DNA of 64,000 nucleotides, from positions 1 to 64,000 of the forward strand of contig UQLR01000007.1 in NCBI GenBank assembly GCA_900541975.1, in the 5' to 3' direction. The notes under the pieces were generated by a model. That model was not told where the DNA came from and ran no database searches. It worked only from the letters and a program-made list of their open reading frames with translations. The translations under genes and the position numbers were made by a program. The stretch's first letter is position 1. Each line of letters starts with the position of its first letter. This document shows positions 47,118 through 60,723 of this stretch, one piece after another. Source of the DNA: an uncultured Oscillospiraceae bacterium (GTDB taxonomy: Bacteria; Bacillota; Clostridia; Oscillospirales; Acutalibacteraceae).

Positions 47118-47840
47118 TTACTGTATTTGCCGGATCAAGTCTCTGATTACCTCGCCGGCGATCATCAGCCCGGCAACAGAAGGAACAAAGGCTATACTGC
47201 CCGGCGTCTGTCTGCGCGCAGAAAGTTCGTTTTCTGTTTCGTTTTGAAAAAGGGGCGTTTTTGGGTGCTCTTTGGAATACAAAACTTTCAGATGTGCAAT
47301 TCCTGCTTTTTTCAGTTCGCGGCGCATCACGCGTGCAAGCGGGCATACAGATGTTTTGGAAAGATCTGTAATTTCAAACATAAATGGATCCAGTTTGTTG
47401 CCCGTGCCCATACAGCTGATAATTGGAATACCCAGCTGTTTTGCCTTTTTGATCAGTAGAAGTTTGGAAGAAACGGTGTCGATTGCATCGACAATATAAT
47501 CACAGGCAGAGAGATCTATGGAATCTGCATTTTCCGCGGTGTAAAATACGGGGAAGGCGGAAACGGCAGCATCCGGATTGATAGATAGGATGCGTTCCCG
47601 CATCACATCCACCTTTGTACAGCCGATGGTTTTGCAGGTTGCAATCAGCTGGCGGTTCAGGTTGCTTGGGGCGATGGTATCGTTGTCCACCAAAAGCAGC
47701 GCGCCCACGCCGCTTCTTGCAAGCGCCTCGCAGGTATAAGAACCCACGCCGCCAATCCCAAACACAGCTACACGCGCTTTTTTAAGTTTGGCGATTCCCG
47801 CCTGTCCAAGCAGCATTTCTGTTCTGGTAAGGTCCAGCAA
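47118..47840 (-). CDS. tcdA: tRNA threonylcarbamoyladenosine dehydratase, TcdA
   Basis: 240 residues from a TTG at 47840 (AGGAGG ten bases upstream). E1-like ThiF/HesA fold: VAVFGIGGVGS nucleotide loop, DNDTIAPSNLNRQ, VDAIDTVSSK. It cyclises t6A37 of tRNA to ct6A using ATP. It is not part of the island E1/E2 system: it lacks a Ubl partner and has the TcdA-specific C-terminus (SIAFVPSVAGLMIAGEVI). Confidence 0.92.
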   Translation of the reverse strand: MLDLTRTEMLLGQAGIAKLKKARVAVFGIGGVGSYTCEALARSGVGALLLVDNDTIAPSNLNRQLIATCKTIGCTKVDVMRERILSINPDAAVSAFPVFYTAENADSIDLSACDYIVDAIDTVSSKLLLIKKAKQLGIPIISCMGTGNKLDPFMFEITDLSKTSVCPLARVMRRELKKAGIAHLKVLYSKEHPKTPLFQNETENELSARRQTPGSIAFVPSVAGLMIAGEVIRDLIRQIQ

Positions 47841-48499: not shown

Positions 48500-48854
48500 G
48501 GGGATGTAAAGGTTTCGACGGGGATTGTAAGCCCTGGTAAGCGAGTAGCGGTGCGGAACCGCTTGAAAATCCGCATTTTATAAATGAAACAACAACAATA
48601 AAGTTGCTTACGCTGCTGCTTAATTAGCAGCGCGCGTTCTTACCGGAAGCACCGCGGTCCGGCAAAGAGCGTCGATTAAGCGGTGAACGTGAACCGGAAA
48701 GTAGTCTTGTATCCGGTCATGCACAAAAGACTACCAATGCAAAAAGCCTGCCTGTGGGCGTTTTGCGGAGGGAATTTAAAAACACAGGCTACACTCGTAG
48801 AAAGCCTTGGTAAGCGATTTTCGGACAGGGGTTCGATTCCCCTCATCTCCACCA
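48500..48854 (+). ncRNA. ssrA: tmRNA (ssrA)
   Basis: About 355 bases. The 5' end GGGGATG pairs with CATCTCC at 48844-48850 as acceptor stem, with ACCA encoded at 48851-48854; GGTTTCGACGGGG and GGGGTTCGATTCCCC are the tRNA-like D and T regions. The tag reading frame ends at TAA 48621-48623 and reads NNNNKVAYAAA; the codon before the first AAC (48588) is TGA in the same frame, so the resume codon appears to be AAC or the frame differs slightly. It lies 26 bases after smpB and rescues stalled ribosomes by trans-translation. Confidence 0.97.
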
Positions 48855-48894
48855 CGTCGCCGCGGATGTCATATCGTTCGCGGCGACGTTTTTT
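48847..48894. repeat. Left direct repeat of the ssrA island (candidate att site)
   Basis: 48 bases from the tmRNA 3' end CTCCACCA through the following hairpin and T-run. The same 48 bases occur at 60548-60595 with two differences. This marks the island boundaries. Confidence 0.75.
48854..48894 (+). terminator. tmRNA terminator
   Basis: Perfect 11-bp stem ACGTCGCCGCG (48854-48864) with complement 48879-48889, then TTTTTT. It is duplicated at the right end of the island. Confidence 0.9.
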
Positions 48895-48932
48895 CAAACG
48901 TCACCTCTCGCTCATTTTGTCGCGGCTCCTCT

Positions 48933-48974
48933 CCGAATCGAACCCGCTGCGCTGGGCTTCGATTCGGTTTTTTT
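48933..48974 (+). terminator. Hairpin with T-run inside the island left end
   Basis: Stem CCGAATCGAA (48933-48942) with complement 48958-48967, then seven T. Confidence 0.8.
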
Positions 48975-49076
48975 ATCTGCAACTTTGGGCATCTATTTTA
49001 TCAATACTTCCCAAACAAATATTGGACGAACACCTACGCGGCTTCGCCGTGAAATGTTCGCTCTGATACAAGCAGA

Positions 49077-49115
49077 AAACGCCGTCTTAGACTTTATTCT
49101 AAGGCGGCGTTTTGC
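49077..49115 (+). terminator. Hairpin terminator upstream of the tnpV remnant
   Basis: Stem AAAACGCCGTCTTAGA with TCTAAGGCGGCGTTTT (49077-49092 and 49098-49113, one wobble). Confidence 0.7.
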
Positions 49116-49196
49116 TATGTCCGAAATCGGCACATTCGTATTATTTTTCATCCTCCTGGAAAATGAAAGTACAATAAAAACAGGAGGATAAATATT

Positions 49197-49542
49197 ATGG
49201 AAAGATCATTATTTGAGCAAATGGGCGGGACATATACTCAGGTTGGAGATTATATGCTACCGGATCTCATACTCTCCGAACAAGAGCATAAGTCTATCGG
49301 AATATGGGGACAACGACACGCAAATTATCTTAAACAGCACCACAAAGTTTTGTATATGAATCTACTTACAAGCGGAAAGTTAAACAGTTATCTTGCTGAC
49401 ATTGATGAACGGGCAGAAAATATGTTTTCAAGGCATTACCGAGCAGCTAAAGGTAAACGACCAAATGATATGGGTAGGTAGAATGAATGCTGTTCGCAAC
49501 GCCGCCACAGAAATCGTGAATAAGAAGCTAATTTACATATGA
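49197..49542 (+). pseudogene. tnpV: tnpV-type transposon protein, frameshifted
   Basis: The ATG at 49197 (CAGGAGGA upstream) opens LFEQMGGTYTQVGDYMLPD and YLKQHHKVLYMNLLTSGKL, the N-terminus of TnpV proteins from Tn4451-type mobilisable transposons. Near 49435 the frame breaks: the expected C-terminus (EQLKVNDQMIWVGRMN...) continues in another frame to a TGA at 49540-49542. TnpV is an accessory element protein of unclear function. Confidence 0.8.
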
Positions 49543-49640
49543 AAATTTTGAAGTATCGCATGTATTGGTGCATCACAAAACAACATATTGGCGACCTCTT
49601 TTTCATTGAATTAGAAAAAGTTAAGCGTACCTGATACTAT

Positions 49641-49679
49641 AAAGCCGTCTGCCTTTCATTTTGAAAGGCAGACGGCTTT
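49641..49679 (-). terminator. Terminator of the conjugation operon
   Basis: Perfect 18-bp stem AAAGCCGTCTGCCTTTCA (49641-49658) with complement 49662-49679, directly downstream of the last gene of the minus-strand operon. Confidence 0.9.
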
Positions 49680-49683
49680 AGTA

Positions 49684-50826
49684 TTATTTAGTCAATGGGA
49701 TTAAGACAGTTTGCCCGACATAAATCTGATCAGGATTGCTGATTCCATTTATGGCAAGAATAATTCCTTTGTTGGAATTATAGTCCAAACCGTACTCATC
49801 ACAAATTTTTGACAGGCTATCGCCAGATTCAACAGTGTAGGTAATAAATTCAATCTTATTACTGTTACCTGTTTCACCATCGTTCTTTTGGCTTTCCACA
49901 AACTCCTTCAGCTCAGTCAATACAGCATCTTGATTTTGAAGTGTTAATTCATGATTTTCAATCATTTCAATCAGGTCAGCAGCAGTAGTCTGACCACTAC
50001 TGTCAAGAATACCGTTCACCAACTGTTCTTGAAGCTTGGAAATTGAATCAGCTTGGTTATCGAGTAACTGCTTCTGATTATCAATTTCTTCAAGCATCTC
50101 ATCTTGCATTTGTAGTTGTTGCTCATATTTCTTATTCAGGGAAGCAGTAAAGAAGGATAAAAATATAGTTGCAAGGCACAGTACAGCAACGAGAGAGGTT
50201 GTTAATATTGGCGGTTTGCGAGGAATATCATCTTTTTTGACGACTTTGGTTTGTTCAATCTTAATTGGCTTGCCAACATCATCGTAAATATAGTATCCCT
50301 TTAGTTTTTCAATTTTGCCATTTTTCCATTGGAAAAATCCACGAATGTTTTGAATGGGATCAATAACATAAGCCACTTGAAACGGCATATTAAAGAAATT
50401 TTCCTGAATGAAAAGATCATAATTAGACAGAAAAACACCATAGTTGGGATGAGTATGTTGCCATCCAACTATTTTTTGGTTAGGATACAACCTTTCATGC
50501 TCAGCATGAACATAATCCCATGTTTCGTGAGTGAATGTTAAAGTTGAAGCAGAAGCATCCGTATACTTTGCTTCTACATAACTTGATATAATAACATTCA
50601 TTTTTCCCATTTCCTGAGCATAATCACCAATGATGATACTTCCAAGTTCCTTGCTAGTATCGGATGATGCCAGTTTTTCAAGAGCTTTATAAACATCTTG
50701 CTTGATATAAACCTTTACATCATCACTTTCAATTTCACCAAAAGTCAAGAAATTCATCGGGAGCTGAACGCTCTGTGTTTGTTCTACATCGTTGTCCTGG
50801 ATTTCAATTTCAAAATCTTTGTCCAC
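49684..50826 (-). CDS. JAB/JAMM isopeptidase-like protein with TM helix, coiled coil and LysM domain
   Basis: 380 residues from a GTG at 50826 (AAGGAAGG upstream). The JAB domain is about 35-190 with JAMM ligands E60, H124, H126, S134 and D137 (HTHPNYGVFLSNYD). After it a transmembrane helix (about 212-235), a coiled coil (about 238-330) and a C-terminal LysM domain (about 332-378: YTVESGDSLSKICDEYG, QIYVGQTVLIPL). Topology puts the peptidase inside and LysM outside on peptidoglycan. JAB enzymes cleave ubiquitin-like proteins from targets or precursors. It is the last gene of the operon, 13 bases after the RING-like gene, and a paralogue of the JAB at 51714. Confidence 0.88.
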   Translation of the reverse strand: MDKDFEIEIQDNDVEQTQSVQLPMNFLTFGEIESDDVKVYIKQDVYKALEKLASSDTSKELGSIIIGDYAQEMGKMNVIISSYVEAKYTDASASTLTFTHETWDYVHAEHERLYPNQKIVGWQHTHPNYGVFLSNYDLFIQENFFNMPFQVAYVIDPIQNIRGFFQWKNGKIEKLKGYYIYDDVGKPIKIEQTKVVKKDDIPRKPPILTTSLVAVLCLATIFLSFFTASLNKKYEQQLQMQDEMLEEIDNQKQLLDNQADSISKLQEQLVNGILDSSGQTTAADLIEMIENHELTLQNQDAVLTELKEFVESQKNDGETGNSNKIEFITYTVESGDSLSKICDEYGLDYNSNKGIILAINGISNPDQIYVGQTVLIPLTK

Positions 50827-50839
50827 CTTTTACCTTCCT

Positions 50840-51721
50840 TTACAAAGAGATTATTAAAATAAGAACTGAATATCCTATAATGGTCAAAATGGTAGCAGTG
50901 GAATTTGCCCCGCCATTTTGAGCAATAAATTGAGAACGATAAGGTTCTGTCATTGACTTAATCTGATTCGCTTTACTCTCAAGATAAGTCATGTAGATGT
51001 AATTTGCAAAAATACCCAATACAATATACCCGGCAAGTGTCAGCAATGATAGGAAGGCAGAGCCAATCAGAAAAATTACGAAAGCTACTGCAAGGACAGC
51101 TGCACCATACCCATACATCTTCCGGTAAATCAACCAATATGGAGTTACCAAAAAAGCACACCAGTTCCAAGATGTTTTCTTATTTTGGGCTTTCATCTCT
51201 TGAAATTTAGGATAGTAATACTCAGATTTTGTTCCAATAAGTTGAACCACATCTGCATCTACTGTTGTGGTTGAAGAATACACATACGAATTATTGAATG
51301 CTGTTTGTTGCTGATAACCATTGTATTGCGGATTCGTATATCTGTAAGGATTAGTATTGTTAGGATCAGCAGGCGTAAATGTATGCTTAACTTCAGGCTG
51401 AGAAATTCCTGTTACCAATCGTGCTCCACACCCGCTACAAAATAATGCTGTATTATCATTTTTTCTTCTGCATCGGGTACAGAAAATATTTTGATCAGGT
51501 TTAATATCATCTTCATATTCCAAAGTGCTGGCTGTAACAGTAGTTGCCGATCCATCGGCAGCTTTGATAGAACCCATGCACCCGAAAGTGGTGCATCCTT
51601 GATTTTCAATCCAACAGTCTTTATGGTGTGGCATGTCACATTCACTGCATACAACAATATCGTCTGTTTCTTGGAAAGCTGTTTTGCAGAATGGACAAAT
51701 TTTGCCTACATAATCATTCAC
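50840..51721 (-). CDS. RING-like zinc protein with zinc ribbon and DUF2628-like membrane region
   Basis: 293 residues from a GTG (51721) eight bases after AGGAGG; its start overlaps the end of the JAB gene by eight bases. N-terminal prokaryotic RING-type domain with C9, C12, C25, C28, H32/H33, C36, C43 and C48 (GKICPFCKTAF, CSECDMPHHKDCW). A second zinc ribbon (CTRC, CSGC) follows at about 81-98. The C-terminal half has YYYPKFQEMK, SWNWCAFLVTPYWLIYRKMY and three to four helices, as in DUF2628 membrane proteins. RING-type domains are E3-like: they may recruit the E2. It is a paralogue of the RING protein at 57045 in its first 50 residues. Confidence 0.82.
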   Translation of the reverse strand: MNDYVGKICPFCKTAFQETDDIVVCSECDMPHHKDCWIENQGCTTFGCMGSIKAADGSATTVTASTLEYEDDIKPDQNIFCTRCRRKNDNTALFCSGCGARLVTGISQPEVKHTFTPADPNNTNPYRYTNPQYNGYQQQTAFNNSYVYSSTTTVDADVVQLIGTKSEYYYPKFQEMKAQNKKTSWNWCAFLVTPYWLIYRKMYGYGAAVLAVAFVIFLIGSAFLSLLTLAGYIVLGIFANYIYMTYLESKANQIKSMTEPYRSQFIAQNGGANSTATILTIIGYSVLILIISL

Positions 51722-52733
51722 TCACAGTTCCTCCTTGTTCTTTTGCACTCTTGGTCGATGAAACACTATTAGTAGTTTTTTCGACCGGCTCGGAGGTGTC
51801 GGTACTTTCCGTCCCTTTGTCTGAGCCTTCCGTTGTTGATTCATCTTCAATTTCTTCGGTGGAAGGCAGAACAGTTTCGTATTCATTTGAAGGAATGTCA
51901 GTTTCTTCACCTTTCAGCATCTTATTTAAGTTTTCAATCTCTATAGCCTGCGATGCAAGTTGTTGCTGCATATAAGCTAAGCTTTGATTGGCACTTGAAA
52001 CAATTGTTTTCTGTTGCTCTTGAAGCTGTTCCAATTTGTTATTTGTTGAAATTTGAGAAAAAATAAGGAATACAACTGCAACGGAAAGCAATGCAAGAAT
52101 AATGTTTTTGATACTAAGCAGCGATTTTTCGGGAATAGATTCGGCTTCTTCTTTCTCTGTTTCAACCGTAATCTTAACGCCGGTTTTATCGTAGATGTAG
52201 AATCCTTTGCATCTTTCAATATTTCCATTTATCCAGAAATAGAAGCCCTCAATGTTCTGAATAGGATCTACAACATAGGCGATTTGATAATCTTCACTAA
52301 AAAAGTTTTGCTGAATAAACTTGTCATATTCGGAGAGAAAAATACCAAAGTCCGGGTGAGTATGTATCCAACCTACTATTTTCTTACCACTATGTTTTTT
52401 CTCTATTTCCTTGTGTACATAATCCCATGTTTCGTGGGTGAATTTCAATGTGGTTGGAGTTCCTTCGGCATACTTGGCTTCAACAAATCCACTTATCACA
52501 ATATTGGTCTTGCCGAATTCGTCAATGACACAGCCTATGAGCATACCGCCACTTTCATTGGTAGTCTTATTTTGAGTGAACTTATGGATTTCCTTATACA
52601 CTTGCTGGGAAATATAGATATTTTTATTTTCTTCGACTCGATCTCCCATAGGCAAAATATTCTGCGGCAATATATTATCGGGAAGCGATGCTTGACTTTC
52701 TTTGTTTACTTTTTTTCTTGCCTTTTTAGCCAC
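51714..52733 (-). CDS. JAB/JAMM isopeptidase-like protein with TM helix
   Basis: 339 residues from a GTG (52733), six bases after the protease gene stop. JAB domain about 35-190 with JAMM ligands E60 (in NESGG), H124, H126, S134 and D137 (HTHPDFGIFLSEYD). A transmembrane helix lies near 208-228, then a short coiled coil and a Ser/Thr/Glu-rich C-terminus, which would be outside. No LysM domain, unlike its paralogue at 49684. Metalloprotease acting on a ubiquitin-like protein, either maturing it by removing residues after Gly-Gly or deconjugating it. The complete ligand set suggests activity. Confidence 0.9.
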   Translation of the reverse strand: MAKKARKKVNKESQASLPDNILPQNILPMGDRVEENKNIYISQQVYKEIHKFTQNKTTNESGGMLIGCVIDEFGKTNIVISGFVEAKYAEGTPTTLKFTHETWDYVHKEIEKKHSGKKIVGWIHTHPDFGIFLSEYDKFIQQNFFSEDYQIAYVVDPIQNIEGFYFWINGNIERCKGFYIYDKTGVKITVETEKEEAESIPEKSLLSIKNIILALLSVAVVFLIFSQISTNNKLEQLQEQQKTIVSSANQSLAYMQQQLASQAIEIENLNKMLKGEETDIPSNEYETVLPSTEEIEDESTTEGSDKGTESTDTSEPVEKTTNSVSSTKSAKEQGGTVSE

Positions 52734-52739
52734 CGGTTT

Positions 52740-53642
52740 TCACTCCCATATATCAATGTCAAAGTCAGTTCGTTCTTTAGGATCATATTTTAAGGTTAAG
52801 TTCTTCTTTTTCTGATATATTAACAAAACAAGCAAAACCACATTACCAATCAGCGAAACACCCGCAATCACAAAAGCTACATAAGTGATTACCGATATGC
52901 TTTCGCTTTCAGTAGAAGGTTTATCATTTTGAGTTTCGTCATTACTATTAGACTGCGTGGGCTCAATTGTATCTCCCGTAGAAGGGAGTACTTTATCTAC
53001 CACATTTCCGGAACTATCAAGCTCAATACCCAGTTCATTAAGATAGTCACAAATTACATTTTCTGGAATTGCAAGACCAATGCCTTCGCTGTCTGACATT
53101 TTAAGCGTATTCATGCCCAACACTTGTCCACTATCATTCAATAGGGGACCTCCGCTATTTCCTTCATTTATAGCGGCATCAATTTGGATATATGTATTAT
53201 AGCCGACTATGCGTTCTTTTGCGGAGATTACTCCTTTTGTTAAGGTGTATGCCATGCTTTTTGGCGCTCCTATTGCATATATGTCATCACCTGTATTCAT
53301 TACTGAAAGATCAGCGATTGGGAGATAAGAAAATTCTGCTCCAGTAATAACTAATACAGCTATGTCTTGGAATTCATTTATTCCAAGAATAGTTGCTTGG
53401 TATTCCTCTCCGCCGTAAGATTTCACATAAACATTTCGTTCATTGGAAATAACATGGGCGTTTGTCACGATACAATTCTTTCCTACAGCAAACCCACTTC
53501 CAAGGGAATTTTCAGAATAAACAACAAATACCGATTCATATACTTCCTCAGCGTTAAATCCAATGGCATAGACTGAGAGTGTGGAGGCGAATAATATCGC
53601 CACCACAATCATCAAAGAGAGTAACACTTTGATTGGCTTCAC
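52740..53642 (-). CDS. Secreted membrane-anchored trypsin-like serine protease
   Basis: 300 residues from a GTG (53642; AGGAGG eleven bases upstream). Signal peptide or anchor about 1-26. Chymotrypsin-fold protease with triad H63 (TNAHV), D93 (QDIAVL) and S163 (GNSGGPL), the HtrA type but with no PDZ domain. After a Ser/Thr/Asn-rich linker there is a C-terminal transmembrane helix (about 252-275) and a short cytoplasmic tail. If residues 1-26 are cleaved the protease faces outside. Placed between the E2 and JAB genes with gaps of 23 and 6 bases, so it is a core operon member. Trypsin-like proteases do occur in some bacterial ubiquitin-like operons. Confidence 0.9.
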   Translation of the reverse strand: MKPIKVLLSLMIVVAILFASTLSVYAIGFNAEEVYESVFVVYSENSLGSGFAVGKNCIVTNAHVISNERNVYVKSYGGEEYQATILGINEFQDIAVLVITGAEFSYLPIADLSVMNTGDDIYAIGAPKSMAYTLTKGVISAKERIVGYNTYIQIDAAINEGNSGGPLLNDSGQVLGMNTLKMSDSEGIGLAIPENVICDYLNELGIELDSSGNVVDKVLPSTGDTIEPTQSNSNDETQNDKPSTESESISVITYVAFVIAGVSLIGNVVLLVLLIYQKKKNLTLKYDPKERTDFDIDIWE

Positions 53643-53665
53643 GATATTACTCGCCTCCTAATCTC

Positions 53666-55552
53666 TTACTTCGTATTAAACACTAACACAGAGTTACCGA
53701 TAGCGATTGTATCGCCTTGGCGAAGAACGTGCCGTGCTGTTTTCTGACCATTTACAATAGTCCCCATAGGTGTACCACAATCTGTCAAAACATACTTACT
53801 GCCTTCTAACTTAATATCGCAGTGATGAGGTCCGACAAGCTTGTCTTTGAACAGAACGATAGTATTCTTGCCATTATTGCCAATGCTTGTTGTTCCTGCA
53901 AAGACAAGATATTCCTTGCCTTCAAATTCACCACGAATAACTTTGAGCCATGCAGCTTTTGCAAACTGTTCAAGCAACCCAACACCAACACCAATCAGGA
54001 TACCCATGATAACGATAGCAACACCTCTTGCAACTATATCGTTTGGAATGATGTCAACCACATAGTTAAACAGGAAGCCGCCGATAAAGGCACCTACCAA
54101 ACTGCCAAGGGCACAGAATAAGATACGTTTCTTTTCCGGCTTAATAAGACCAACAGCAATACCAATGCCAAGTCCCATTATTGCCCACCCAAGGCCACGA
54201 ACAAATGCTGCTGTTAAGTCAGCGGGATCATCCGTAAGCATTTCGGTATACATCCATTGTGCTAAATAACCGCTAACGAATCCAATGGCGAGAGAAACAC
54301 CTGCGCCTATCAAAGCGTATTTTATGGCTTTCTCCTTCGAGCCATAGAACACGCCCTCGCCAATGCCAAGGAACAGCCCAATAAACAATGCAATGATTGC
54401 CGACCAAAGCGCAGTACTGATCCTTGTTACTGTTGCTAAAGCATCACCGAGTTTATCTTCGTTCTCATTGTATTCATCTACATAGACATCATAGAGAGCA
54501 TCATCCGCTTTATTGCTAAGTTGCAGATAATCTTCTATGTATCCTTCGACCGCATCTGAAATTTCACCACTTGATATCCATTTAGACAAACCATCCTCAT
54601 CTTCAGGATCTACATTATTTTGAGAGCACCACTTCTTAAATTCAGCATCTACCTTATCAAGCTCATTGTTGGCATCAGCAGTATATTCATAGTACTCGAC
54701 GAGTTCTCCGTGGCCACTTAACCGTGCAGCGGTAATTTCACCGGTAATGTTATTATCAGTTAATTCTGATACACCAAAACCAATAAATGCGCCAATCAAC
54801 GCCCACAGTAAACCTTTGACAAAAACAGTTTTGAAGTTAATCTTATTTCCTTTTACTGTTCCTCCATGAGATACCGTCTGCATACGCTGTGCGGTTGGAA
54901 CAAATTCAATTCCTGCAAGTTCTTCTGCTGTAATCTCGAAGTCGTTCTCGTCATCTTTTTCAGTTGTAGCAACGGCGACTGATATCTGTGCAGAGCCTTC
55001 ATTTTCATGAACAGCAAAAGACGGCTCCGCTACTTTTTGCCCCTCGTCATCAAACAGATCGATATCCACAGTATCTTTTGCAGAAGTATAATCGGCAATA
55101 TGCAATTCAACATTACCAACCGGAAACAGATGTTTATTGTCCATTGCCCATTGTGCCGCATCTGCTGAAAGAGGGCTATATGAATTCCATGATTTATACT
55201 GTATCATATCCCCGATATTGATGATAATATCGCTTAGTGATTCGCCAGCCCCCCAAATATCTCCGATACAGATTTGTTCATCTCGGAAATTAGGATGCCA
55301 AATGGGTGTAAGAATTTTGCAAATCGGTTTATAACGTGGATAATCAGCATGAAGTGTAATTTCCACCTCATGCCGACTGAGTGTTTCGATTCTGCCATCT
55401 GGCAGAAGATATATACCGTTCACAAAATATGTAACATGATATTTCTCCGGCGGCGCATCGCCAATCGGAGTAACAATTATGTTTTTGTGACCGGTAAAGT
55501 CTTTTTTGACTTGCTCGTAGTCAGATGCAAGTCGTCTCATTCTCGCGGTCAT
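53666..55552 (-). CDS. E2-like conjugating enzyme fused to membrane helices and an FHA domain
   Basis: 628 residues from the ATG at 55552, which follows AAAGGAGA; the frame extends 5' into the E1 gene. Residues about 1-140 form an E2 (UBC) fold: MRRLASDYEQVKK helix, the HPN motif at 86-88 (IWHPNF) and the catalytic-type C95 seven residues on (QICIGDIW). A linker follows, then about six glycine-rich transmembrane helices (about 250-540) with an acidic loop. The C-terminal FHA domain (about 550-628) has TTSIGNNGKNTIV, GPHHCDI and GTIVNGQ, a phosphothreonine-binding fold. Both E2 and FHA ends should be cytoplasmic. I know of no common E2-TM-FHA fusion. Confidence 0.88.
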   Translation of the reverse strand: MTARMRRLASDYEQVKKDFTGHKNIIVTPIGDAPPEKYHVTYFVNGIYLLPDGRIETLSRHEVEITLHADYPRYKPICKILTPIWHPNFRDEQICIGDIWGAGESLSDIIINIGDMIQYKSWNSYSPLSADAAQWAMDNKHLFPVGNVELHIADYTSAKDTVDIDLFDDEGQKVAEPSFAVHENEGSAQISVAVATTEKDDENDFEITAEELAGIEFVPTAQRMQTVSHGGTVKGNKINFKTVFVKGLLWALIGAFIGFGVSELTDNNITGEITAARLSGHGELVEYYEYTADANNELDKVDAEFKKWCSQNNVDPEDEDGLSKWISSGEISDAVEGYIEDYLQLSNKADDALYDVYVDEYNENEDKLGDALATVTRISTALWSAIIALFIGLFLGIGEGVFYGSKEKAIKYALIGAGVSLAIGFVSGYLAQWMYTEMLTDDPADLTAAFVRGLGWAIMGLGIGIAVGLIKPEKKRILFCALGSLVGAFIGGFLFNYVVDIIPNDIVARGVAIVIMGILIGVGVGLLEQFAKAAWLKVIRGEFEGKEYLVFAGTTSIGNNGKNTIVLFKDKLVGPHHCDIKLEGSKYVLTDCGTPMGTIVNGQKTARHVLRQGDTIAIGNSVLVFNTK

Positions 55553-55565
55553 ACGCTTGTCTCCT

Positions 55566-56750
55566 TTATAGATTTTCAAACACTTCGGCTTCGTCTTCCG
55601 AGAACTCATAATAAGTTGTATTCATTCCAATCCGTCCACCAATGATGTGAAGTAGCGGGATACCAATTTCATATGGTGTCTTATCCAGGAAATCTTCATC
55701 ACCCTTAATGGAGTGGAGAGAATCAAAGACCATTTGCTTGCCACACTTGGGGCAAGTCAACATTTCGCCTTTCAACTTGTGAACAGGCATATAGAGGTCT
55801 TTATGCTCACCACATGAACAGTTAGCTGTAGTCGCTATATCTCGGTCAAAGTCAATTACTGCTTTTTCTCCGAGATCAGAGCGAACTTCCGAAAGCAAAT
55901 CTCTCAAACGAATCGTTCTAACCGACCAGGATTTCGGTATAATTGTTTCATATGTATCATGGCTCATGCAGTCTTCTTTGCGCTGATACTCTACAACATA
56001 TGAATCATGCGTAAGACCATTGAAAACAAAACCTTTTCCTGCCAGAGTAGGAAGCCCTCGATCAGAATGGAGAAGCTTTAACATCTCTTGGACTTGAATT
56101 CCTGCAATCACCGATGAAGATGTTGGGGTGGTTGGGATTTTGCCTTCTGCCATTTGTTCATGTGTCAGAAGCGCACAAGACTTTCTCTTGTTAATGAGCA
56201 TCCAATCAGTTTCCGTCATAGTACACTCATAGCAAGCCCCTTGCCCTGGCACGAATACTCTTGCAAAACCGTTAAGAGCCTCAATAGCGCCATCAATCCA
56301 TGGCTTATTAACCTTATAGCAGGACTGATTTATTGAAAGTCTGGCCTCTCGGTTGTCAAGCCCGCCAAGGACAACATCCATGCGCCGAAACACCCCAAGT
56401 CCTACATCATCAATGATATTGCTGACGAAAGCTTTTGCCTTTACATCTGGGTTGATCTCCATGGAACGCTCTGCGGCAATCTCAGCCTTGTATCTTCCCA
56501 CGTCTTTGGCTCTAAACAGTATAGATCGGGTTAGATTGGTGCTTTCGATCGCATCCATATCAAAAACAAGAATTCTACCAATGCCGAGGAGCGTAAGGTT
56601 TTTGATTAGTTCATTGCCGATTGCGCCAGCTCCGACAACCATAATGATGGCATTTTTCAAGCGTTCCTGATCCCACCATGGTATCAGGCGAAGGCGGCTG
56701 TAACGGTCTTCCTCAAAATCTGAAGCCTGTAAATCAACGTTATTTTCCAT
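55566..56750 (-). CDS. E1-like ubiquitin-activating enzyme (ThiF/MoeB fold)
   Basis: 394 residues. The ATG overlaps the Ubl stop (TAATG), so the two are translationally coupled. It has the ATP-binding loop GAGAIGNE at 40-47, DMDAIESTNLTRS, GLDNREAR and the Cys pair CYEC (173-176). The crossover segment KRKSCALLTHEQ holds C192, a candidate catalytic cysteine, before PTTPTSSSVIAGIQVQE. The C-terminal part carries two further zinc Cys pairs (CSCGEH and CPKCGK). It would adenylate the Ubl C-terminus and pass it to the E2 encoded next. Confidence 0.9.
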   Translation of the reverse strand: MENNVDLQASDFEEDRYSRLRLIPWWDQERLKNAIIMVVGAGAIGNELIKNLTLLGIGRILVFDMDAIESTNLTRSILFRAKDVGRYKAEIAAERSMEINPDVKAKAFVSNIIDDVGLGVFRRMDVVLGGLDNREARLSINQSCYKVNKPWIDGAIEALNGFARVFVPGQGACYECTMTETDWMLINKRKSCALLTHEQMAEGKIPTTPTSSSVIAGIQVQEMLKLLHSDRGLPTLAGKGFVFNGLTHDSYVVEYQRKEDCMSHDTYETIIPKSWSVRTIRLRDLLSEVRSDLGEKAVIDFDRDIATTANCSCGEHKDLYMPVHKLKGEMLTCPKCGKQMVFDSLHSIKGDEDFLDKTPYEIGIPLLHIIGGRIGMNTTYYEFSEDEAEVFENL

Positions 56751-57028
56751 TAGAAGACACCGCCTGCCGTAATTTCCGGCTGAAGGCGAAGTACATCACC
56801 ATCTTTAATTCCTGCTTCTGAAAGCGTTTGAGCTTCGAGAAGTTGTCTTCCGGTAACTTTATGTATAAATTTGTAGCTAATCGGATTTCCGTCAGGTCCA
56901 ACGGAAGGCAGCTTAATTTTTTCAACAAGCTTCACCATAATGATGCCGCATTTAATATCGTCCGGCAAACCAACCTTTTGTTCTTTGTTGCCAGTGGCAT
57001 CGACGATAACTACATTAACCTTTGCCAT
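56750..57028 (-). CDS. Ubiquitin-like protein (YukD/EsaB-type beta-grasp) ending Gly-Gly-Val-Phe
   Basis: 92 residues from the ATG at 57028, eight bases after AGGAGG. Beta-grasp pattern: KVNVVIVDATGN strand pair, helix ...IIMVKLVEKIKLP, YKFIHKVTGRQL, and TLSEAGIKDGDVLRL, as in the YukD/EsaB family and ubiquitin. The C-terminus is ITAGGVF: a Gly-Gly at 89-90 followed by two residues, the shape of a precursor to be trimmed before activation. It lies directly upstream of the E1 gene. No signal peptide; cytoplasmic. Confidence 0.9.
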   Translation of the reverse strand: MAKVNVVIVDATGNKEQKVGLPDDIKCGIIMVKLVEKIKLPSVGPDGNPISYKFIHKVTGRQLLEAQTLSEAGIKDGDVLRLQPEITAGGVF

Positions 57029-57044
57029 TGTATTATCCTCCTTT

Positions 57045-58007
57045 TTAATCTACTAAATTATCCAAAGCACGATAGCAAGACAAGAATTCATCGGTTGTTT
57101 CGTTATTGTCATCACTATAAGAGTTGTAGTTTCCTGAAGGAGCCGTAGCGAGGCTGTAAAAATCAGTGTATACATTATAGAGATCTTTGACTGCATCGCA
57201 GATTTCTTCTATATCATCAATATCTTCTTCTAACAAACCATCTGGAACAATTTTAATTTCGGAATACAACGATTTCATTTGAGAATCATAAGTTTCTGCC
57301 TGCGAAATCTCAGCAGACTTATCAACAAGTGCATATAAAATTGCAGCATTGATATCTAACCCGTATTTGTCCTCCCAAATATTTTCATACCAATAAGTCT
57401 GTACCGTGTCGGCAATATCTTCAAGGTTTGTACCCGCTTTATAAGAAAGTGAAAGAAATTTTTCAACATTGGCTAAATAGTCTTTTTTGACCTCTTCCGC
57501 CTTTTTACTACCCATAATCCCTGAGATTATTACTCCAAGTCCAACACAGACTACCAGAACCACCCCAATAATAATCGGCAATACTTTAGATTTCTTCTTT
57601 TTCTTTTCTACACTTGCATTGAACTGACTAATTGCAGAAGCCGCTGTAGTATCCACAACAACCCCCATTTTCTGACCGCACTTAGGGCAGAATTCCTGTC
57701 CTTCTTGCAGTTCTGCGCCGCACTTCCCACAGATGTTTTTTTTCACACCATCCTTTGGTGTTCCACACTTAGGACAAAAAGCTTGTCCATCTCCAAGTGG
57801 TGTGCCACAATTTGGGCACACATCCGTCGGGTTGGTTCCTTGTGCCTCATAATGTTGCTCTGAGCATCCAAAGGTTGTGCAGCCCTTGTTTTCTTCCCAA
57901 CATGCTTCATGATGCGGAAGTCCGCATGCCGGACAGACTTTGATTGCATCTTCTTCCTTGATTTCTGTTTTACAGAACGGGCAGATCTTACCGATGTAGT
58001 TTTCCAT
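57045..58007 (-). CDS. RING-like zinc protein with zinc ribbons and a TM-anchored extracellular domain
   Basis: 320 residues from the ATG at 58007 (GAGGAGG six bases upstream; the frame extends 5' without a site). N-terminal RING-like domain with C9, C12, C25, C28, H32/H33, C36, C43 and C48, nearly identical in plan to the protein at 50840. Two double-Cys zinc ribbons follow (CPNC/CPKC and CGKC/CPKC, about residues 60-125). After a Lys-rich stretch comes one transmembrane helix (about 152-175) and an acidic helical domain of about 145 residues that would be extracellular. It is the first intact gene of the conjugation operon, 17 bases before the Ubl gene. Confidence 0.85.
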   Translation of the reverse strand: MENYIGKICPFCKTEIKEEDAIKVCPACGLPHHEACWEENKGCTTFGCSEQHYEAQGTNPTDVCPNCGTPLGDGQAFCPKCGTPKDGVKKNICGKCGAELQEGQEFCPKCGQKMGVVVDTTAASAISQFNASVEKKKKKSKVLPIIIGVVLVVCVGLGVIISGIMGSKKAEEVKKDYLANVEKFLSLSYKAGTNLEDIADTVQTYWYENIWEDKYGLDINAAILYALVDKSAEISQAETYDSQMKSLYSEIKIVPDGLLEEDIDDIEEICDAVKDLYNVYTDFYSLATAPSGNYNSYSDDNNETTDEFLSCYRALDNLVD

Positions 58008-58074
58008 GATGTTCCTCCTCAAAATAGACTTTTTCAATTTTTTAGCCGCCTTTCGGTAGCAAATTAACAACATT

Positions 58075-58534
58075 TCAGTTCGGCAGACACATTTTACACG
58101 GCGCATATTCGCCACTTTCAAATTCTTTTACCGTTATTCTTTGCACATTTGTTTTATCCTTGATAAATATACATTCTTCCTTGTGATACTTATTTCCACT
58201 TTCCGTCAGGTAGTATTCACCATAATAGCTTTGCTCTTTTTGAATTGCACCCCAAATTAAAACGCCGCCAATCATTAGCAGACTATTAAAGTCGAAAATA
58301 CGACTGTCTTTTTGTGTTGATGCATCCTTTTGATTGCTCTATCGCTTTCTCGATTCCTAACGAATTTATAAGTTTGGTAATATCCGGGTTGTTAAAAATA
58401 CTGTTAAACTCTATAAGCGTATAACCTTGCCGGGTTAGAATGTTTCTCAGTGTTTCGAGATTAACTGACTTTAAGTTATATTCTGTTAGGAACCTTTTTG
58501 CCTTTATTTTGGCATCATTCTGTATCACTTTCAC
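58075..58534 (-). pseudogene. ImmA-like regulator gene, internally deleted
   Basis: Two minus-strand frames abut: 82 residues (58534 to 58286; GTG start overlapping the XRE gene end) and 66 residues (58275 to 58075). The first reads like the N-terminus of ImmA/IrrE-type partners of XRE repressors (NLETLRNILTRQGYTLIEF, SKGCINTKRQSYF); the second is a membrane helix followed by YYGEYYLTESGNKYHKEEC and CKMC, like the C-terminal tail of such proteins. The central metallopeptidase part with HExxH is missing. I infer one gene with an internal deletion. Alternatively they are two small genes. Confidence 0.5.
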
Positions 58535-59075
58535 TGGCCCTCTTGATAGCTTTTATTGTCTTGGCAACTTCAGCATCTCTTGCAACTGAAGTTGCCTGGG
58601 AAAGACTTAATCCGCCAAACGATTTTATAATCGCTTCGCTTGGCAGTTGGCTACAACGAGCATATTCCACCATAATCACAGAACGGATTGATTGAAGAGC
58701 CTGCTGATCCAAACTTTCGAGAATTTCCTGAGAGTGCTCGTCCAGAATGGCACGCATCTCAAAACTTGAATAATTCAGTCCGTCATTGAATCTCGTAACA
58801 AGATCTTTCGGAAAAATTGAAAGCATACGAATCATTTTATGTGTTTTGTGGTTGTAATCAAAGAACAGTACAAGAGAAAGATATGTGCTCCATGCCATTT
58901 TTCTGCTCTTGTGCTCAACAGCACTATAGGTCTGTCTTGAAATGCCGATAAGATTTGCCAAATCTTCTTGCGAAATCCCAGCTTGAGTTCTTAATGCGGC
59001 TAAATTATTTGTAAGTATCGCAATGTACTTTTCCTTTTCCGTAACTGTCAATGCCCATTTGGATTCAGATGTCAT
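58515..59075 (-). CDS. XRE-family transcriptional repressor
   Basis: 186 residues from the ATG at 59075 (AGGAAAG upstream; a GTG at 59087 is the alternative). Helix-turn-helix about residues 30-60: RTQAGISQEDLANLIGIS, RQTYSAVEHKSR. The C-terminal 120 residues are helical and of unknown function. It overlaps the ImmA-like gene by 20 bases. It lies at the head of the minus-strand operon, behind a consensus promoter and a small palindrome that could be its operator, so it probably autoregulates and silences the conjugation operon. Confidence 0.88.
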   Translation of the reverse strand: MTSESKWALTVTEKEKYIAILTNNLAALRTQAGISQEDLANLIGISRQTYSAVEHKSRKMAWSTYLSLVLFFDYNHKTHKMIRMLSIFPKDLVTRFNDGLNYSSFEMRAILDEHSQEILESLDQQALQSIRSVIMVEYARCSQLPSEAIIKSFGGLSLSQATSVARDAEVAKTIKAIKRASESDTE

Positions 59076-59116
59076 TGATGCGCCCACTTTCCTATAAACA
59101 TGTATACAATTTTCAT

Positions 59117-59131
59117 AAAGTATCTTACTTT
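59117..59131. promoter_or_regulatory. Candidate XRE operator palindrome
   Basis: AAAGTA-TCT-TACTTT, a perfect 6-base inverted repeat with a 3-base centre, in the leader between the promoter at 59166-59194 and the XRE start. Size and place fit a helix-turn-helix dimer. Confidence 0.5.
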
Positions 59132-59165
59132 ACGAAAGCAGACAAATTATCATTTACACTATAAG

Positions 59166-59194
59166 ATTATACATAATGTTGTCGAATTTGTCAA
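59166..59194 (-). promoter_or_regulatory. Consensus promoter of the XRE/conjugation operon
   Basis: Minus strand TTGACA (59189-59194) and TATAAT (59166-59171) with a 17-base spacer, a perfect sigma-A match, about 90 bases before the XRE start. Confidence 0.85.
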
Positions 59195-59291
59195 TATGTC
59201 GCATAAAAAATCGAAAATAAGCGTTTAATGTGTAAATTCTGTAGCGGTTTTGACATTGTGAGGTTGAAACAACATTGTTTTCTTGTTTTAA

Positions 59292-60723
59292 GCCGTCAAC
59301 TATGCCGAGTCGCACAATTACACGGTAGTCGGTGAATATATAGACCGGGCGCAAAGCGGCAAGTTTGATAACCGTGCCGATTTTCAAAGGATGATCGCAG
59401 ACAGCGAAAAACACACCTTTGAAGGGGGGCTTGTATACCAGCTTGACCGCTTTGCCCGTAACCGATACGACAGTGCGATTTACAAATCAAAGCTGAAGAA
59501 AAACGGCGTAAGAGGCCTGTCTGCGAAAGAGAATATTACCGATGATGCTTCGGGCATTCTTATTGAAGGCGTCCTTGAAAGTATGGCGGAATATTACTCC
59601 GTAGAACTTGCACAGAAGATTCATCGAGGTATGTCCATCAATGCCGAAAAGTGTTTGTCAAACGGCAGTAATTCCGGTCTCGGATTTAAAGTAAACAAAA
59701 AGGACCGCACATTCTATGTTGATGAGGACGAAGCGGCTATTGTCCGTGAAATTTACGAGCGATATGCCGCAGGTGAAACAAAAGCGGAAATCGTTAAGGA
59801 CTTGCAGAGAAGGAAGGTGAAAACTTCCCTTGGAAACGAGTTCACATACAACAGTCTCAGCCGCTTGCTCAAGAACAAACGCGATCTTGGCATATATTTA
59901 TACAAAGGAGTTGAAACACCCGGCGGAATGCCACTGCATCCTGGATGACGATTTATTCTATCGGGTACAAGCGCTTATGAACAAGAACAAATCTGCACCT
60001 GCCCGGACAAGGGGCGAAAACGAATATCTGTTGACTACAAAGCTTTTCTGCGGCCATTGCAAGGAAATGATGGTGGGATACGGCGGAACGGGAAAATCCG
60101 GCAAGCAGTACCACTGTTATATGTGCAAGAGAGCCCGCAAAAAGAAATGTGACAAGAAGATAGTCAGTAAGGATTATATCGAAAATCGTGCTATCAGCGA
60201 GTGCCTTAAAATGCTGACCGAGCGGTTGAATCAACGGCAGGCGGAAAAAGCAGAATTGGAAACGCAGCTTGCCATTGAGAACAATAAGAAAATCTGCCTG
60301 TCCGAAGCGCAGATTTTAGCCTTTCTGGATTATGTGTGTGAAATGCCGATGGATGACTTTCATAAGCGCAGAGCGATTATCAATATATTCGTTCATTCCA
60401 TTTACCTGTATGACGACCACTTCACATTGATTATCAATGCGAGCAAGAAGCCTTTAAGCATTGATAATATCCCGCTCAATGATATTGAAGCCGTTTTTGA
60501 AGGCAAAAACAGCGAAACGGGGGGGTGTTCATCGTTGATGACACCCGCTCCACCATGTCGCCGCGGACGTCATATCGTTCGCGGCGACGTTTTTTTATTC
60601 CGCGCCGGCTTTTTTGGAAAGGGCATTGGCTTGTTATGCAGGTGTTTTTCTTTCCGAAAATACCGTACTTACTGCGACTGTTTGCAAACGCACTTGCGGC
60701 GTTTCTGCTGCGCTATTTCTTAG
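59292..60723 (+). pseudogene. Large serine recombinase, N-terminally truncated and frameshifted
   Basis: Homology begins at 59292 right after a TAA, with NYAESHNYTVVGEYIDRA, QLDRFARNRYDSAI and SMAEYYSVELAQKI, that is, without the first roughly 30 residues holding the catalytic serine. At about 59932 one extra base in the GGAATGCCA.. segment shifts the frame (the first frame stops at 59948); the rest continues from the second frame: LDDDLFYRVQALM, the zinc ribbon CGHC/CYMC, a coiled coil and the C-terminal region. The frame then runs through the right-hand repeat to a stop at 60723. Such recombinases integrate and excise mobile elements; this copy should be inactive. Confidence 0.88.
60548..60595. 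repeat. Right direct repeat of the ssrA island (candidate att site)
   Basis: 48 bases matching 48847-48894 with two differences, including CTCCACCA and the complete GTCGCCGCGG hairpin with T-run. It lies in the 3' end of the recombinase frame. Confidence 0.75.

What the first reader, a model, noticed from the sequence alone, without database searches (positions are those of the whole stretch)
49684..58007. Complete ubiquitin-like conjugation operon (RING, Ubl, E1, E2, protease, JAB, RING, JAB)
Eight tightly spaced minus-strand genes encode every class needed for a ubiquitin-like cycle: a beta-grasp Ubl, an E1-like ThiF enzyme, an E2 with HPN and catalytic-type Cys, two RING-type zinc proteins as E3 candidates, and two JAMM isopeptidases plus a trypsin-like protease for maturation or removal. 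Catalytic residues are intact throughout. E1/E2/JAB/Ubl operons are known in bacteria from comparative genomics by Burroughs, Iyer and Aravind and from the antiphage Bil and Bub systems. This version differs in its YukD-type Ubl, duplicated RING and JAB proteins and multi-membrane architecture. It lies in a mobile island, as defence or interaction systems often do.
Basis: partly seen in the sequence, partly recalled or inferred. Interest (0 to 1): 0.95.

Follow-up and report, generated by a model that had tools for sequence, protein, structure and literature searches.

The report
Bacterial membrane-bound ubiquitin-like tagging operon
An 11.7-kb DNA island inserted beside a bacterial tmRNA gene carries eight genes for a complete ubiquitin-style cycle - the small tag, E1, E2, RING-type zinc proteins and JAB proteases - predicted to fasten the tag onto other proteins, likely at the cell membrane, and take it off again; this would be a eukaryote-like signalling pathway inside ordinary Clostridia.

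Summary
Pfam, structure prediction and 41 related loci support the eight genes at 49684-58007: YukD-type Ubl, one-domain ThiF E1, membrane E2 with HPN and Cys, two Prok-RING_1 proteins, two JAMM proteases, one trypsin-like protease. Catalytic residues of E1, E2, JABs and trypsin are invariant in the aligned relatives. New here: (1) the Ubl is 92% identical at the median; 118 of 120 relatives and 28 of 28 loci sequences keep ...ITAG, after which conservation stops (43 of 118 end there; others carry unrelated tails, zinc ribbons or a lipoprotein), so the mature end is probably Ala-Gly; the window's 'GG' is chance. (2) JAB is present in 20 of 20 loci and is the likely maturase; the trypsin is missing in 4 of 20 and is predicted outside the membrane. 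(3) A 48-bp repeat of the tmRNA 3' end bounds the island; its recombinase is broken. (4) Relatives carry an upstream HTH plus M78 peptidase pair resembling CapH+CapP; the window's peptidase is broken. (5) It is rare (7 of 391 class genomes), with no match in the plasmids, phages and viral contigs searched. The kind was predicted in 2011 (recalled). Conjugation, substrates and purpose remain inferred.

The parts
57045..58007 (-). RING1: Prok-RING_1 zinc domain, further zinc ribbons, one TM helix (residues 143-161), 320 aa; E3 candidate
   Evidence: Pfam PF14446 7e-13, PF13240 5.9e-16; ligand pattern C-x2-C-x12-C-x2-C-x3-H-H-x2-C-x6-C-x4-C; TM by hydropathy
56750..57028 (-). Ubl: YukD-type beta-grasp modifier, 92 aa, ...LQPEITAG followed by the tail GVF
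   Evidence: PF08817 7.7e-12; 742 relatives, 120 listed; ITAG in 118 of 120 plus 28 of 28 sequences
55566..56750 (-). E1: single ThiF adenylation domain with Cys192 and a C-terminal domain with four more conserved Cys, which aligns with the C-terminal end of eukaryotic E1s
   Evidence: PF00899 2.4e-54; C192, C173/C176/C261/H264, C311/C313/C333/C336 invariant in 36 of 36; AF2 pLDDT 84.1
53666..55552 (-). E2: N-terminal UBC domain (H86 P87 N88 ... C95), multi-pass membrane region, C-terminal FHA, 628 aa
52740..53642 (-). Trypsin-like (HtrA-type) serine protease with signal peptide and C-terminal TM; catalytic domain predicted outside the membrane
   Evidence: PF13365 1.1e-27; H63, D93, S163 invariant in 28 of 28; hydropathy
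51714..52733 (-). JAB1: JAMM metalloprotease with TM helix 211-229
   Evidence: PF01398 3.4e-09; E60, H124, H126, S134, D137 invariant in 21 of 21
50840..51721 (-). RING2: Prok-RING_1 zinc domain plus zinc ribbon and DUF2628-like membrane part
   Evidence: PF14446 4.5e-14, PF10947 5.1e-05
49684..50826 (-). JAB2: JAMM metalloprotease, TM helix 212-230, C-terminal LysM predicted outside
   Evidence: PF01398 4.6e-07, PF01476 1.3e-11; E60, H124, H126, S134, D137 invariant in 23 of 23
58515..59087 (-). XRE-type HTH regulator, conserved upstream in some relatives
   Evidence: PF01381 2.9e-08; homologue upstream in 9 of 24 loci with more than 5 kb upstream
58075..58534 (-). Two remnants of an M78/ImmA-IrrE-type membrane peptidase gene; the part that holds the HExGH motif is missing
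   Evidence: pieces match residues 1-74 and 159-223 of the L001 homologue; that homologue is PF06114 1.1e-07
59391..60545 (+). Broken serine recombinase (start of the first domain missing, reading frame interrupted)
   Evidence: PF00239 4.2e-08 (from profile position 68) and PF07508 4e-12 on the first ORF; recombinase zinc ribbon PF13408 2.9e-07 on the second ORF, in another frame
48847..48894 (+). Left att-like repeat, overlapping the tmRNA 3' end
   Evidence: 48-nt direct repeat, 96% to the right copy; core absent elsewhere in the window
60548..60595 (+). Right att-like repeat
48500..48854 (+). tmRNA gene, likely insertion site of the island
   Evidence: ARAGORN

Best explanation
This is an eight-gene operon that encodes a ubiquitin-like protein, an E1, a membrane E2, two RING-type zinc proteins, two JAB proteases and a trypsin-like protease, and it is predicted to run a reversible ubiquitin-like conjugation cycle, likely on the inner face of the cytoplasmic membrane. 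Shown by sequence: the domains, the intact catalytic residues, the hydrophobic helices, the extreme conservation of the Ubl up to ...ITAG and the free variation behind it. Inferred steps: a JAB trims the Ubl precursor after Ala-Gly; the E1 dimer adenylates that glycine and holds it on Cys192; the C-terminal domain of the E1 hands it to Cys95 of the membrane E2; the RING proteins bring E2 and substrate together; JAB1 or JAB2 removes the tag. Substrates are probably proteins at or in the membrane. The LysM of JAB2 and the outward-facing protease would tie the cycle to the cell wall. In relatives an HTH repressor and an M78 peptidase likely switch the operon on under stress; in this window that peptidase is broken, so control here is either lost or locked.
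Against: No conjugate, thioester or substrate is shown for this family. The mature end is Ala-Gly, not Gly-Gly. The E2 model is only moderate (mean pLDDT 68.9, low around the active site), and only 3 Foldseek matches reach E 0.001. The zinc domain has a C4HC3 ligand order, which PHD and RINGv domains share (recalled), and Pfam also lists a weak PHD match, so E3 function is not assured. A downstream RING2 was not found in 5 of 20 loci and a second JAB in 8 of 20. Topology rests on hydropathy and charge alone, and for JAB1 the flanking charges are even. The Ubl's family, YukD, is known as a non-conjugated T7SS part (PMC1779556, passages). L007 has an internally shortened Ubl gene. Joint-inheritance correlations would also follow from shared species history.
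Confidence: 0.72

Rival explanations
1. It is an anti-phage defence system of the Bil type: under attack it conjugates the Ubl to phage proteins and spoils the particles.
For: It sits on a mobile island; relatives carry an HTH plus M78 pair (M78 is the commonest Pfam family among 149 neighbours, 7 members) that resembles CapH+CapP; 219 of 544 Bub operons go with CapW or CapH+CapP (PMC13373217 passages). Distribution is patchy.
Against: Among the same 149 neighbours the 25 of 77 PADLOC rows shown at 1e-25 are single methyltransferases, one type IV nuclease, one PDC-S72 and two mad3-like proteins (no control set was run), so no defence island is evident. Two features that set Bil apart are absent (single Ubl, one-domain E1). 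The envelope parts (LysM, outward protease) do not suggest phage assembly as target. The same regulators may also serve general stress (PMC13373217).
Confidence: 0.2
2. It is a type VII secretion offshoot: the YukD-like protein is a structural part of a membrane complex and the E1 and E2 only modify the machine itself.
For: The Ubl is YukD family; FHA and YukD proteins are common T7SS parts (PMC11217815 passages).
Against: No ORF of the size of an FtsK/EssC ATPase, and by eye no WXG100 gene, is in the island, nor are such families in the 25 of 128 neighbour families shown. T7SS YukD proteins lack the C-terminal Gly-Gly, whereas here a terminal Gly is kept in 118 of 120 next to E1, E2 and JAB.
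Confidence: 0.06
3. It is a sulfur-carrier or cofactor pathway like ThiS/ThiF or MoaD/MoeB, with an E2-like bystander.
For: The E1 has one ThiF domain and a MoeB-like zinc site (likeness recalled); ThiF and MoeB NCBIfam matches, all below cut-off.
Against: E2 with HPN and Cys, RING-type proteins and JABs accompany it; the E1 profile is nearer to eukaryotic E1s; no biosynthetic gene lies in the operon.
Confidence: 0.04

Closest known systems
Caldiarchaeum subterraneum E1/E2/srfp-RING/Ub/Rpn11 operon (PMC5654768, PMC6043591; passages)
   Same: One gene each for E1, E2, RING-type protein, Ub precursor with a C-terminal tail, and a JAMM protease; eukaryote-like E1 and E2
   Different: Archaeal, Gly-Gly end, C3H2C3 RING; here YukD-type Ubl with Ala-Gly end, membrane E2 with FHA, membrane C4HC3 RINGs, LysM-JAB and an outward protease
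Prok-RING_1 / YukD-type operons predicted by Burroughs, Iyer and Aravind 2011 (recalled; paper not held)
   Same: Most probably the same or a sister group: RING, E1, E2, JAB and a YukD-like Ubl
   Different: Cannot be compared gene by gene here; for the Ala-Gly end, Ubl fusions, HTH-M78 control and the tmRNA island I saw no mention in the texts I could read
Bil (BilABCD) antiphage system (features from passages of the review PMC11354881)
   Same: Ubl, E1, E2 and JAB in one operon
   Different: Bil has two fused Ubl domains, an E1 with inactive plus active adenylation domains and an E2 with a CEHH motif; here single Ubl, one adenylation domain, HPN E2, RING proteins
Bub (Gong 2025, Ye 2026; not held, named in PMC13373217)
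   Same: E1/E2/Ubl operon (recalled), often with CapW or CapH+CapP upstream
   Different: Its enzymology could not be read here; no word beginning with RING was found in PMC13373217
T7SS YukD/EsaB
   Same: Ubl family PF08817
   Different: No EssC-type ATPase here; T7SS YukD lacks the terminal Gly-Gly and was reported not conjugated

Membership tests
Ubiquitin-like E1-E2-E3 conjugation system (general kind) | E1 with adenylation motif and catalytic Cys | tested here: met
   ThiF 2.4e-54; G40-x-G42-x-x-G45, R75, D132, C192 invariant in 36 of 36 (roles recalled)
Ubiquitin-like E1-E2-E3 conjugation system (general kind) | E2 UBC fold with HPN and catalytic Cys | tested here: met
   UQ_con above cut-off; H86 P87 N88 C95 invariant (there numbered one lower); Foldseek and VIA matches to E2s
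Ubiquitin-like E1-E2-E3 conjugation system (general kind) | Ubl with conserved C-terminal Gly, tail or fusion removed | tested here: inconclusive
   sequence pattern met: ITAG in 118 of 120 and 28 of 28, tails free; cleavage itself not testable here
Ubiquitin-like E1-E2-E3 conjugation system (general kind) | RING E3 activity | not testable with these tools
   Prok-RING_1 above cut-off; of 41 proteins picked by a pattern of six ligands, 40 share the spacing of the last two Cys, but C4HC3 order is also that of PHD (recalled)
Ubiquitin-like E1-E2-E3 conjugation system (general kind) | Covalent conjugates | not testable with these tools
   needs biochemistry
Bil (ISG15-like) | Two fused Ubl domains | tested here: not met
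   one YukD domain in 92 aa; feature taken from PMC11354881
Bil (ISG15-like) | E1 with inactive plus active adenylation domains | tested here: not met
   a single ThiF stretch, residues 20-261 of 394
Bub | Its own E1/E2/Ubl enzymology | not tested
   defining papers not held
Type VII secretion | WXG100 protein and FtsK/EssC ATPase in the cluster | tested here: not met
   no ORF of ATPase size in the island 48847-60595 besides the named genes; WXG100 judged by eye only
CapH+CapP-type control | HTH repressor plus adjacent M78 peptidase | tested here: inconclusive
   present in relatives (PF06114 in 7 of 149 neighbour proteins; HTH in 9 of 24 loci); in the window only the HTH is whole; ssDNA response not testable
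Integrative island | Direct repeat of the insertion gene at both ends and a recombinase | tested here: met
   48-bp repeat 96% identical at the tmRNA 3' end, chance expectation 0.00 for its 32-bp core; recombinase present but broken; no empty site shown

The most novel reading that the evidence does not exclude
A true bacterial 'envelope ubiquitin': a SUMO-like, 92%-conserved modifier with an Ala-Gly end, charged by a eukaryote-like E1 and a membrane-embedded E2, that tags membrane proteins under stress while a LysM-JAB, touching the cell wall from outside, couples the state of the wall to tag removal; in a few relatives the same cut releases a lipoprotein from its Ubl leader.
Probability: 0.25. 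Interest if true: 0.9.

Novelty: new variant of a known kind. Interest (0 to 1): 0.72.

Why it matters
Bacterial ubiquitin-like systems with E1 and E2 are now known from defence (CBASS, Bil), but in the texts I could read a complete cascade with a RING protein had been reconstituted only for an archaeon. Here such a set is present in Clostridia, including named isolates, with a Ubl conserved at 92%. It makes three things directly testable: whether bacteria use RING-type E3s, how a YukD-type protein became a modifier, and whether ubiquitin-like tagging can operate on the bacterial envelope.

Tried and rejected
Trypsin as Ubl maturase: rejected as unlikely (outside by hydropathy; no match even by tblastn in 4 of 20 loci). 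Di-Gly end in the window (TAGGVF): rejected, since the residue after TAG is Gly in only 15 of 118 and 7 of 28. Phospho-reading FHA: doubtful, since the Arg and Ser seen in GarA are Asn and Ala/Gly here. Plasmid or phage carriage: E2 in plasmids and phages, Ubl in plasmids, island DNA in plasmids, E2 and E1 in viral contigs: no match at those settings. Defence-island test: weak, without a control set. tRNA-borne repeats in L001, L003, L036, L037: none found, although L003 and L036 lie next to tRNA-Arg(cct) and L001 has an integrase near tRNA-Ala. Empty site and host genus: the nearest tmRNA loci are only about 74% identical, so no empty site could be shown. PHROGs: unnamed families only, for E1 and RING1. 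PDB by sequence for the Ubl: nothing convincing. In some searches a family not listed is not excluded. My ORF picker missed genes (5 Ubls and several RINGs), so the presence counts were redone with tblastn for Ubl, trypsin, RING and JAB. Rows dropped: P0129 and P0240 lack TAG (ends look frame-shifted or truncated by eye); rows under 250-300 aa; L020 (close to L019) and L039 (same MAG as L006) were left out of the neighbour set, which took genes of 140-700 aa within 6 kb, and 15 of its 164 genes (eight long ones, seven others) were dropped to keep within limits.
Full report
What is there. The window holds eight minus-strand genes at 49684-58007 with gaps of -8 to +23 nt. Pfam names each class above its cut-off: Prok-RING_1 (twice), YukD, ThiF, UQ_con plus FHA, Trypsin_2, JAB (twice, one with LysM). 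No NCBIfam row shown reaches its cut-off; in PADLOC the E1 and JABs match E1-E2 and JAB models in part and the E2 only at 0.037.

Relatives. A protein search gave 794 relatives of the E2 (only the 7995 candidates sharing most words were scored) and 742 of the Ubl, with 120 of each listed. One genome scan gave 41 loci, mostly Clostridia MAGs, with Lachnospiraceae MC2017 and LC2019, Massiliimalia massiliensis and Clostridium weizhouense, and contigs labelled Synergistaceae, Synergistales and Roseiflexaceae (binning errors not excluded). Gene order is kept. Of 26 loci with at least 4 kb before the E2, 26 have E1 and 26 Ubl (5 of these found only by tblastn, one internally shortened), 25 a RING-type stretch upstream and the last one downstream. 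Of 20 with at least 6 kb after the E2, 20 have a JAB, 12 two or more JAB stretches, 16 the trypsin, 15 a downstream RING2-like stretch. The core is thus Ubl, E1, E2, JAB and a RING-type protein; the trypsin and the second JAB are optional. Distances of E1 and E2 correlate (33 sequences, r 0.68, 0 of 999 permutations), and so do those of trypsin, JAB1, JAB2 and RING1 with E1 (r 0.50-0.80), as for parts inherited together; shared species history would give the same. It is rare: 7 of 391 genomes of the class of G002, centre included, one of the seven partial, and 1 of 196 in the family of G001, the centre itself.

The tag. The Ubl is the most conserved part: median identity 92% (31 loci), against 77 for E1, 67 for E2, 52 and 51 for the JABs, 51 for RING1, 45 for the trypsin and 43 for RING2. 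In 118 of 120 protein relatives and 28 of 28 loci sequences the protein holds ITAG, with the six positions before it nearly invariant; after TAG any of many residues follows, and 43 of 118 and 5 of 28 simply stop. Tails include zinc ribbons (P0127, P0128, P0132, P0134, P0135, L037) and, in two MAGs (L006 and L039 from one, L008 from the other), a signal sequence with lipobox (by eye) and an outer domain. The pattern is that of SUMO, NEDD8 and pro-ubiquitin, and in C. subterraneum a JAMM protease makes such a cut (PMC6043591, PMC5654768; passages). So the mature end here should be Ala-Gly.

Topology. By hydropathy Ubl and E1 have no membrane helix; E2, both RINGs and both JABs do. Flanking charges put the catalytic side of RING1, RING2, JAB2 and the E2 inside and the protease domain outside; for JAB1 they are even, and I place it by likeness to JAB2. 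The LysM of JAB2 then lies outside. This part is inferred.

The island. tmRNA and a 48-bp direct repeat, 96% identical, at 48847 and 60548 bound 11.7 kb; the repeat's 32-bp core has a chance expectation of 0.00 in the window. Inside are TnpV, the operon, an HTH gene, two remnants of an M78 gene and a broken serine recombinase. Relatives keep an HTH (9 of 24 loci with more than 5 kb upstream) and a membrane-anchored M78 peptidase (7 loci; commonest Pfam family among 149 neighbours). A pair of this kind, CapH+CapP, controls immune operons by DNA damage, and CapW or CapH+CapP go with 219 of 544 Bub operons (PMC13373217, passages). Here the peptidase core is missing, so this copy may be fixed in one state.

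Known or new. The general kind is known: predicted by Burroughs, Iyer and Aravind in 2011 (recalled; not held), reconstituted for an archaeon, and used for defence in Bil and CBASS. The rows listed by my text searches showed no experimental work on conjugation by a YukD-type system; the library lacks most subscription papers. Against Bil two defining features fail. I therefore call it a new variant of a known kind, with conjugation likely (0.72) and purpose open.

Noticed in passing
L006:6640-7863, L008:6388-7896, L039:5392-6630: The Ubl is fused behind TAG to a signal sequence with lipobox (by eye) and an outer domain, as if Ubl were a cleavable leader of a lipoprotein.
   Followed up: partly
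P0127, P0128, P0132, P0134, P0135 and L037:8215-8805: The Ubl runs on behind TAG into a zinc ribbon, in L037 with hydrophobic helices.
   Followed up: partly
L001:5506-7623, L010:3973-6279, L019:5124-7580, L024:5445-7655: Large (705-818 aa) RING-type proteins, with repeat-rich C-terminal halves and, in the two tested, one membrane helix, sit upstream of RING1 in relatives but not in the window.
   Followed up: partly
window 50507-50613 and 52414-52520: JAB1 and JAB2 share a 107-nt stretch at 70% identity, so they look like a duplication.
   Followed up: no
window 47118-47840: A second ThiF-family-like gene lies near the tmRNA, outside the island.
   Followed up: no
window 53666-55552, FHA at the E2 C-terminus: The FHA is strongly conserved among relatives yet lacks the Arg and Ser of the phosphothreonine site; what it binds is unknown.
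   Followed up: partly
L007:8085-8265: The Ubl gene lacks its middle (residues 32-58) in this MAG; decay or assembly error.
   Followed up: no
window 49197-49481: A TnpV gene (PF14198, 3e-27) sits inside the island near its left end, a sign of a second mobile element.
   Followed up: no
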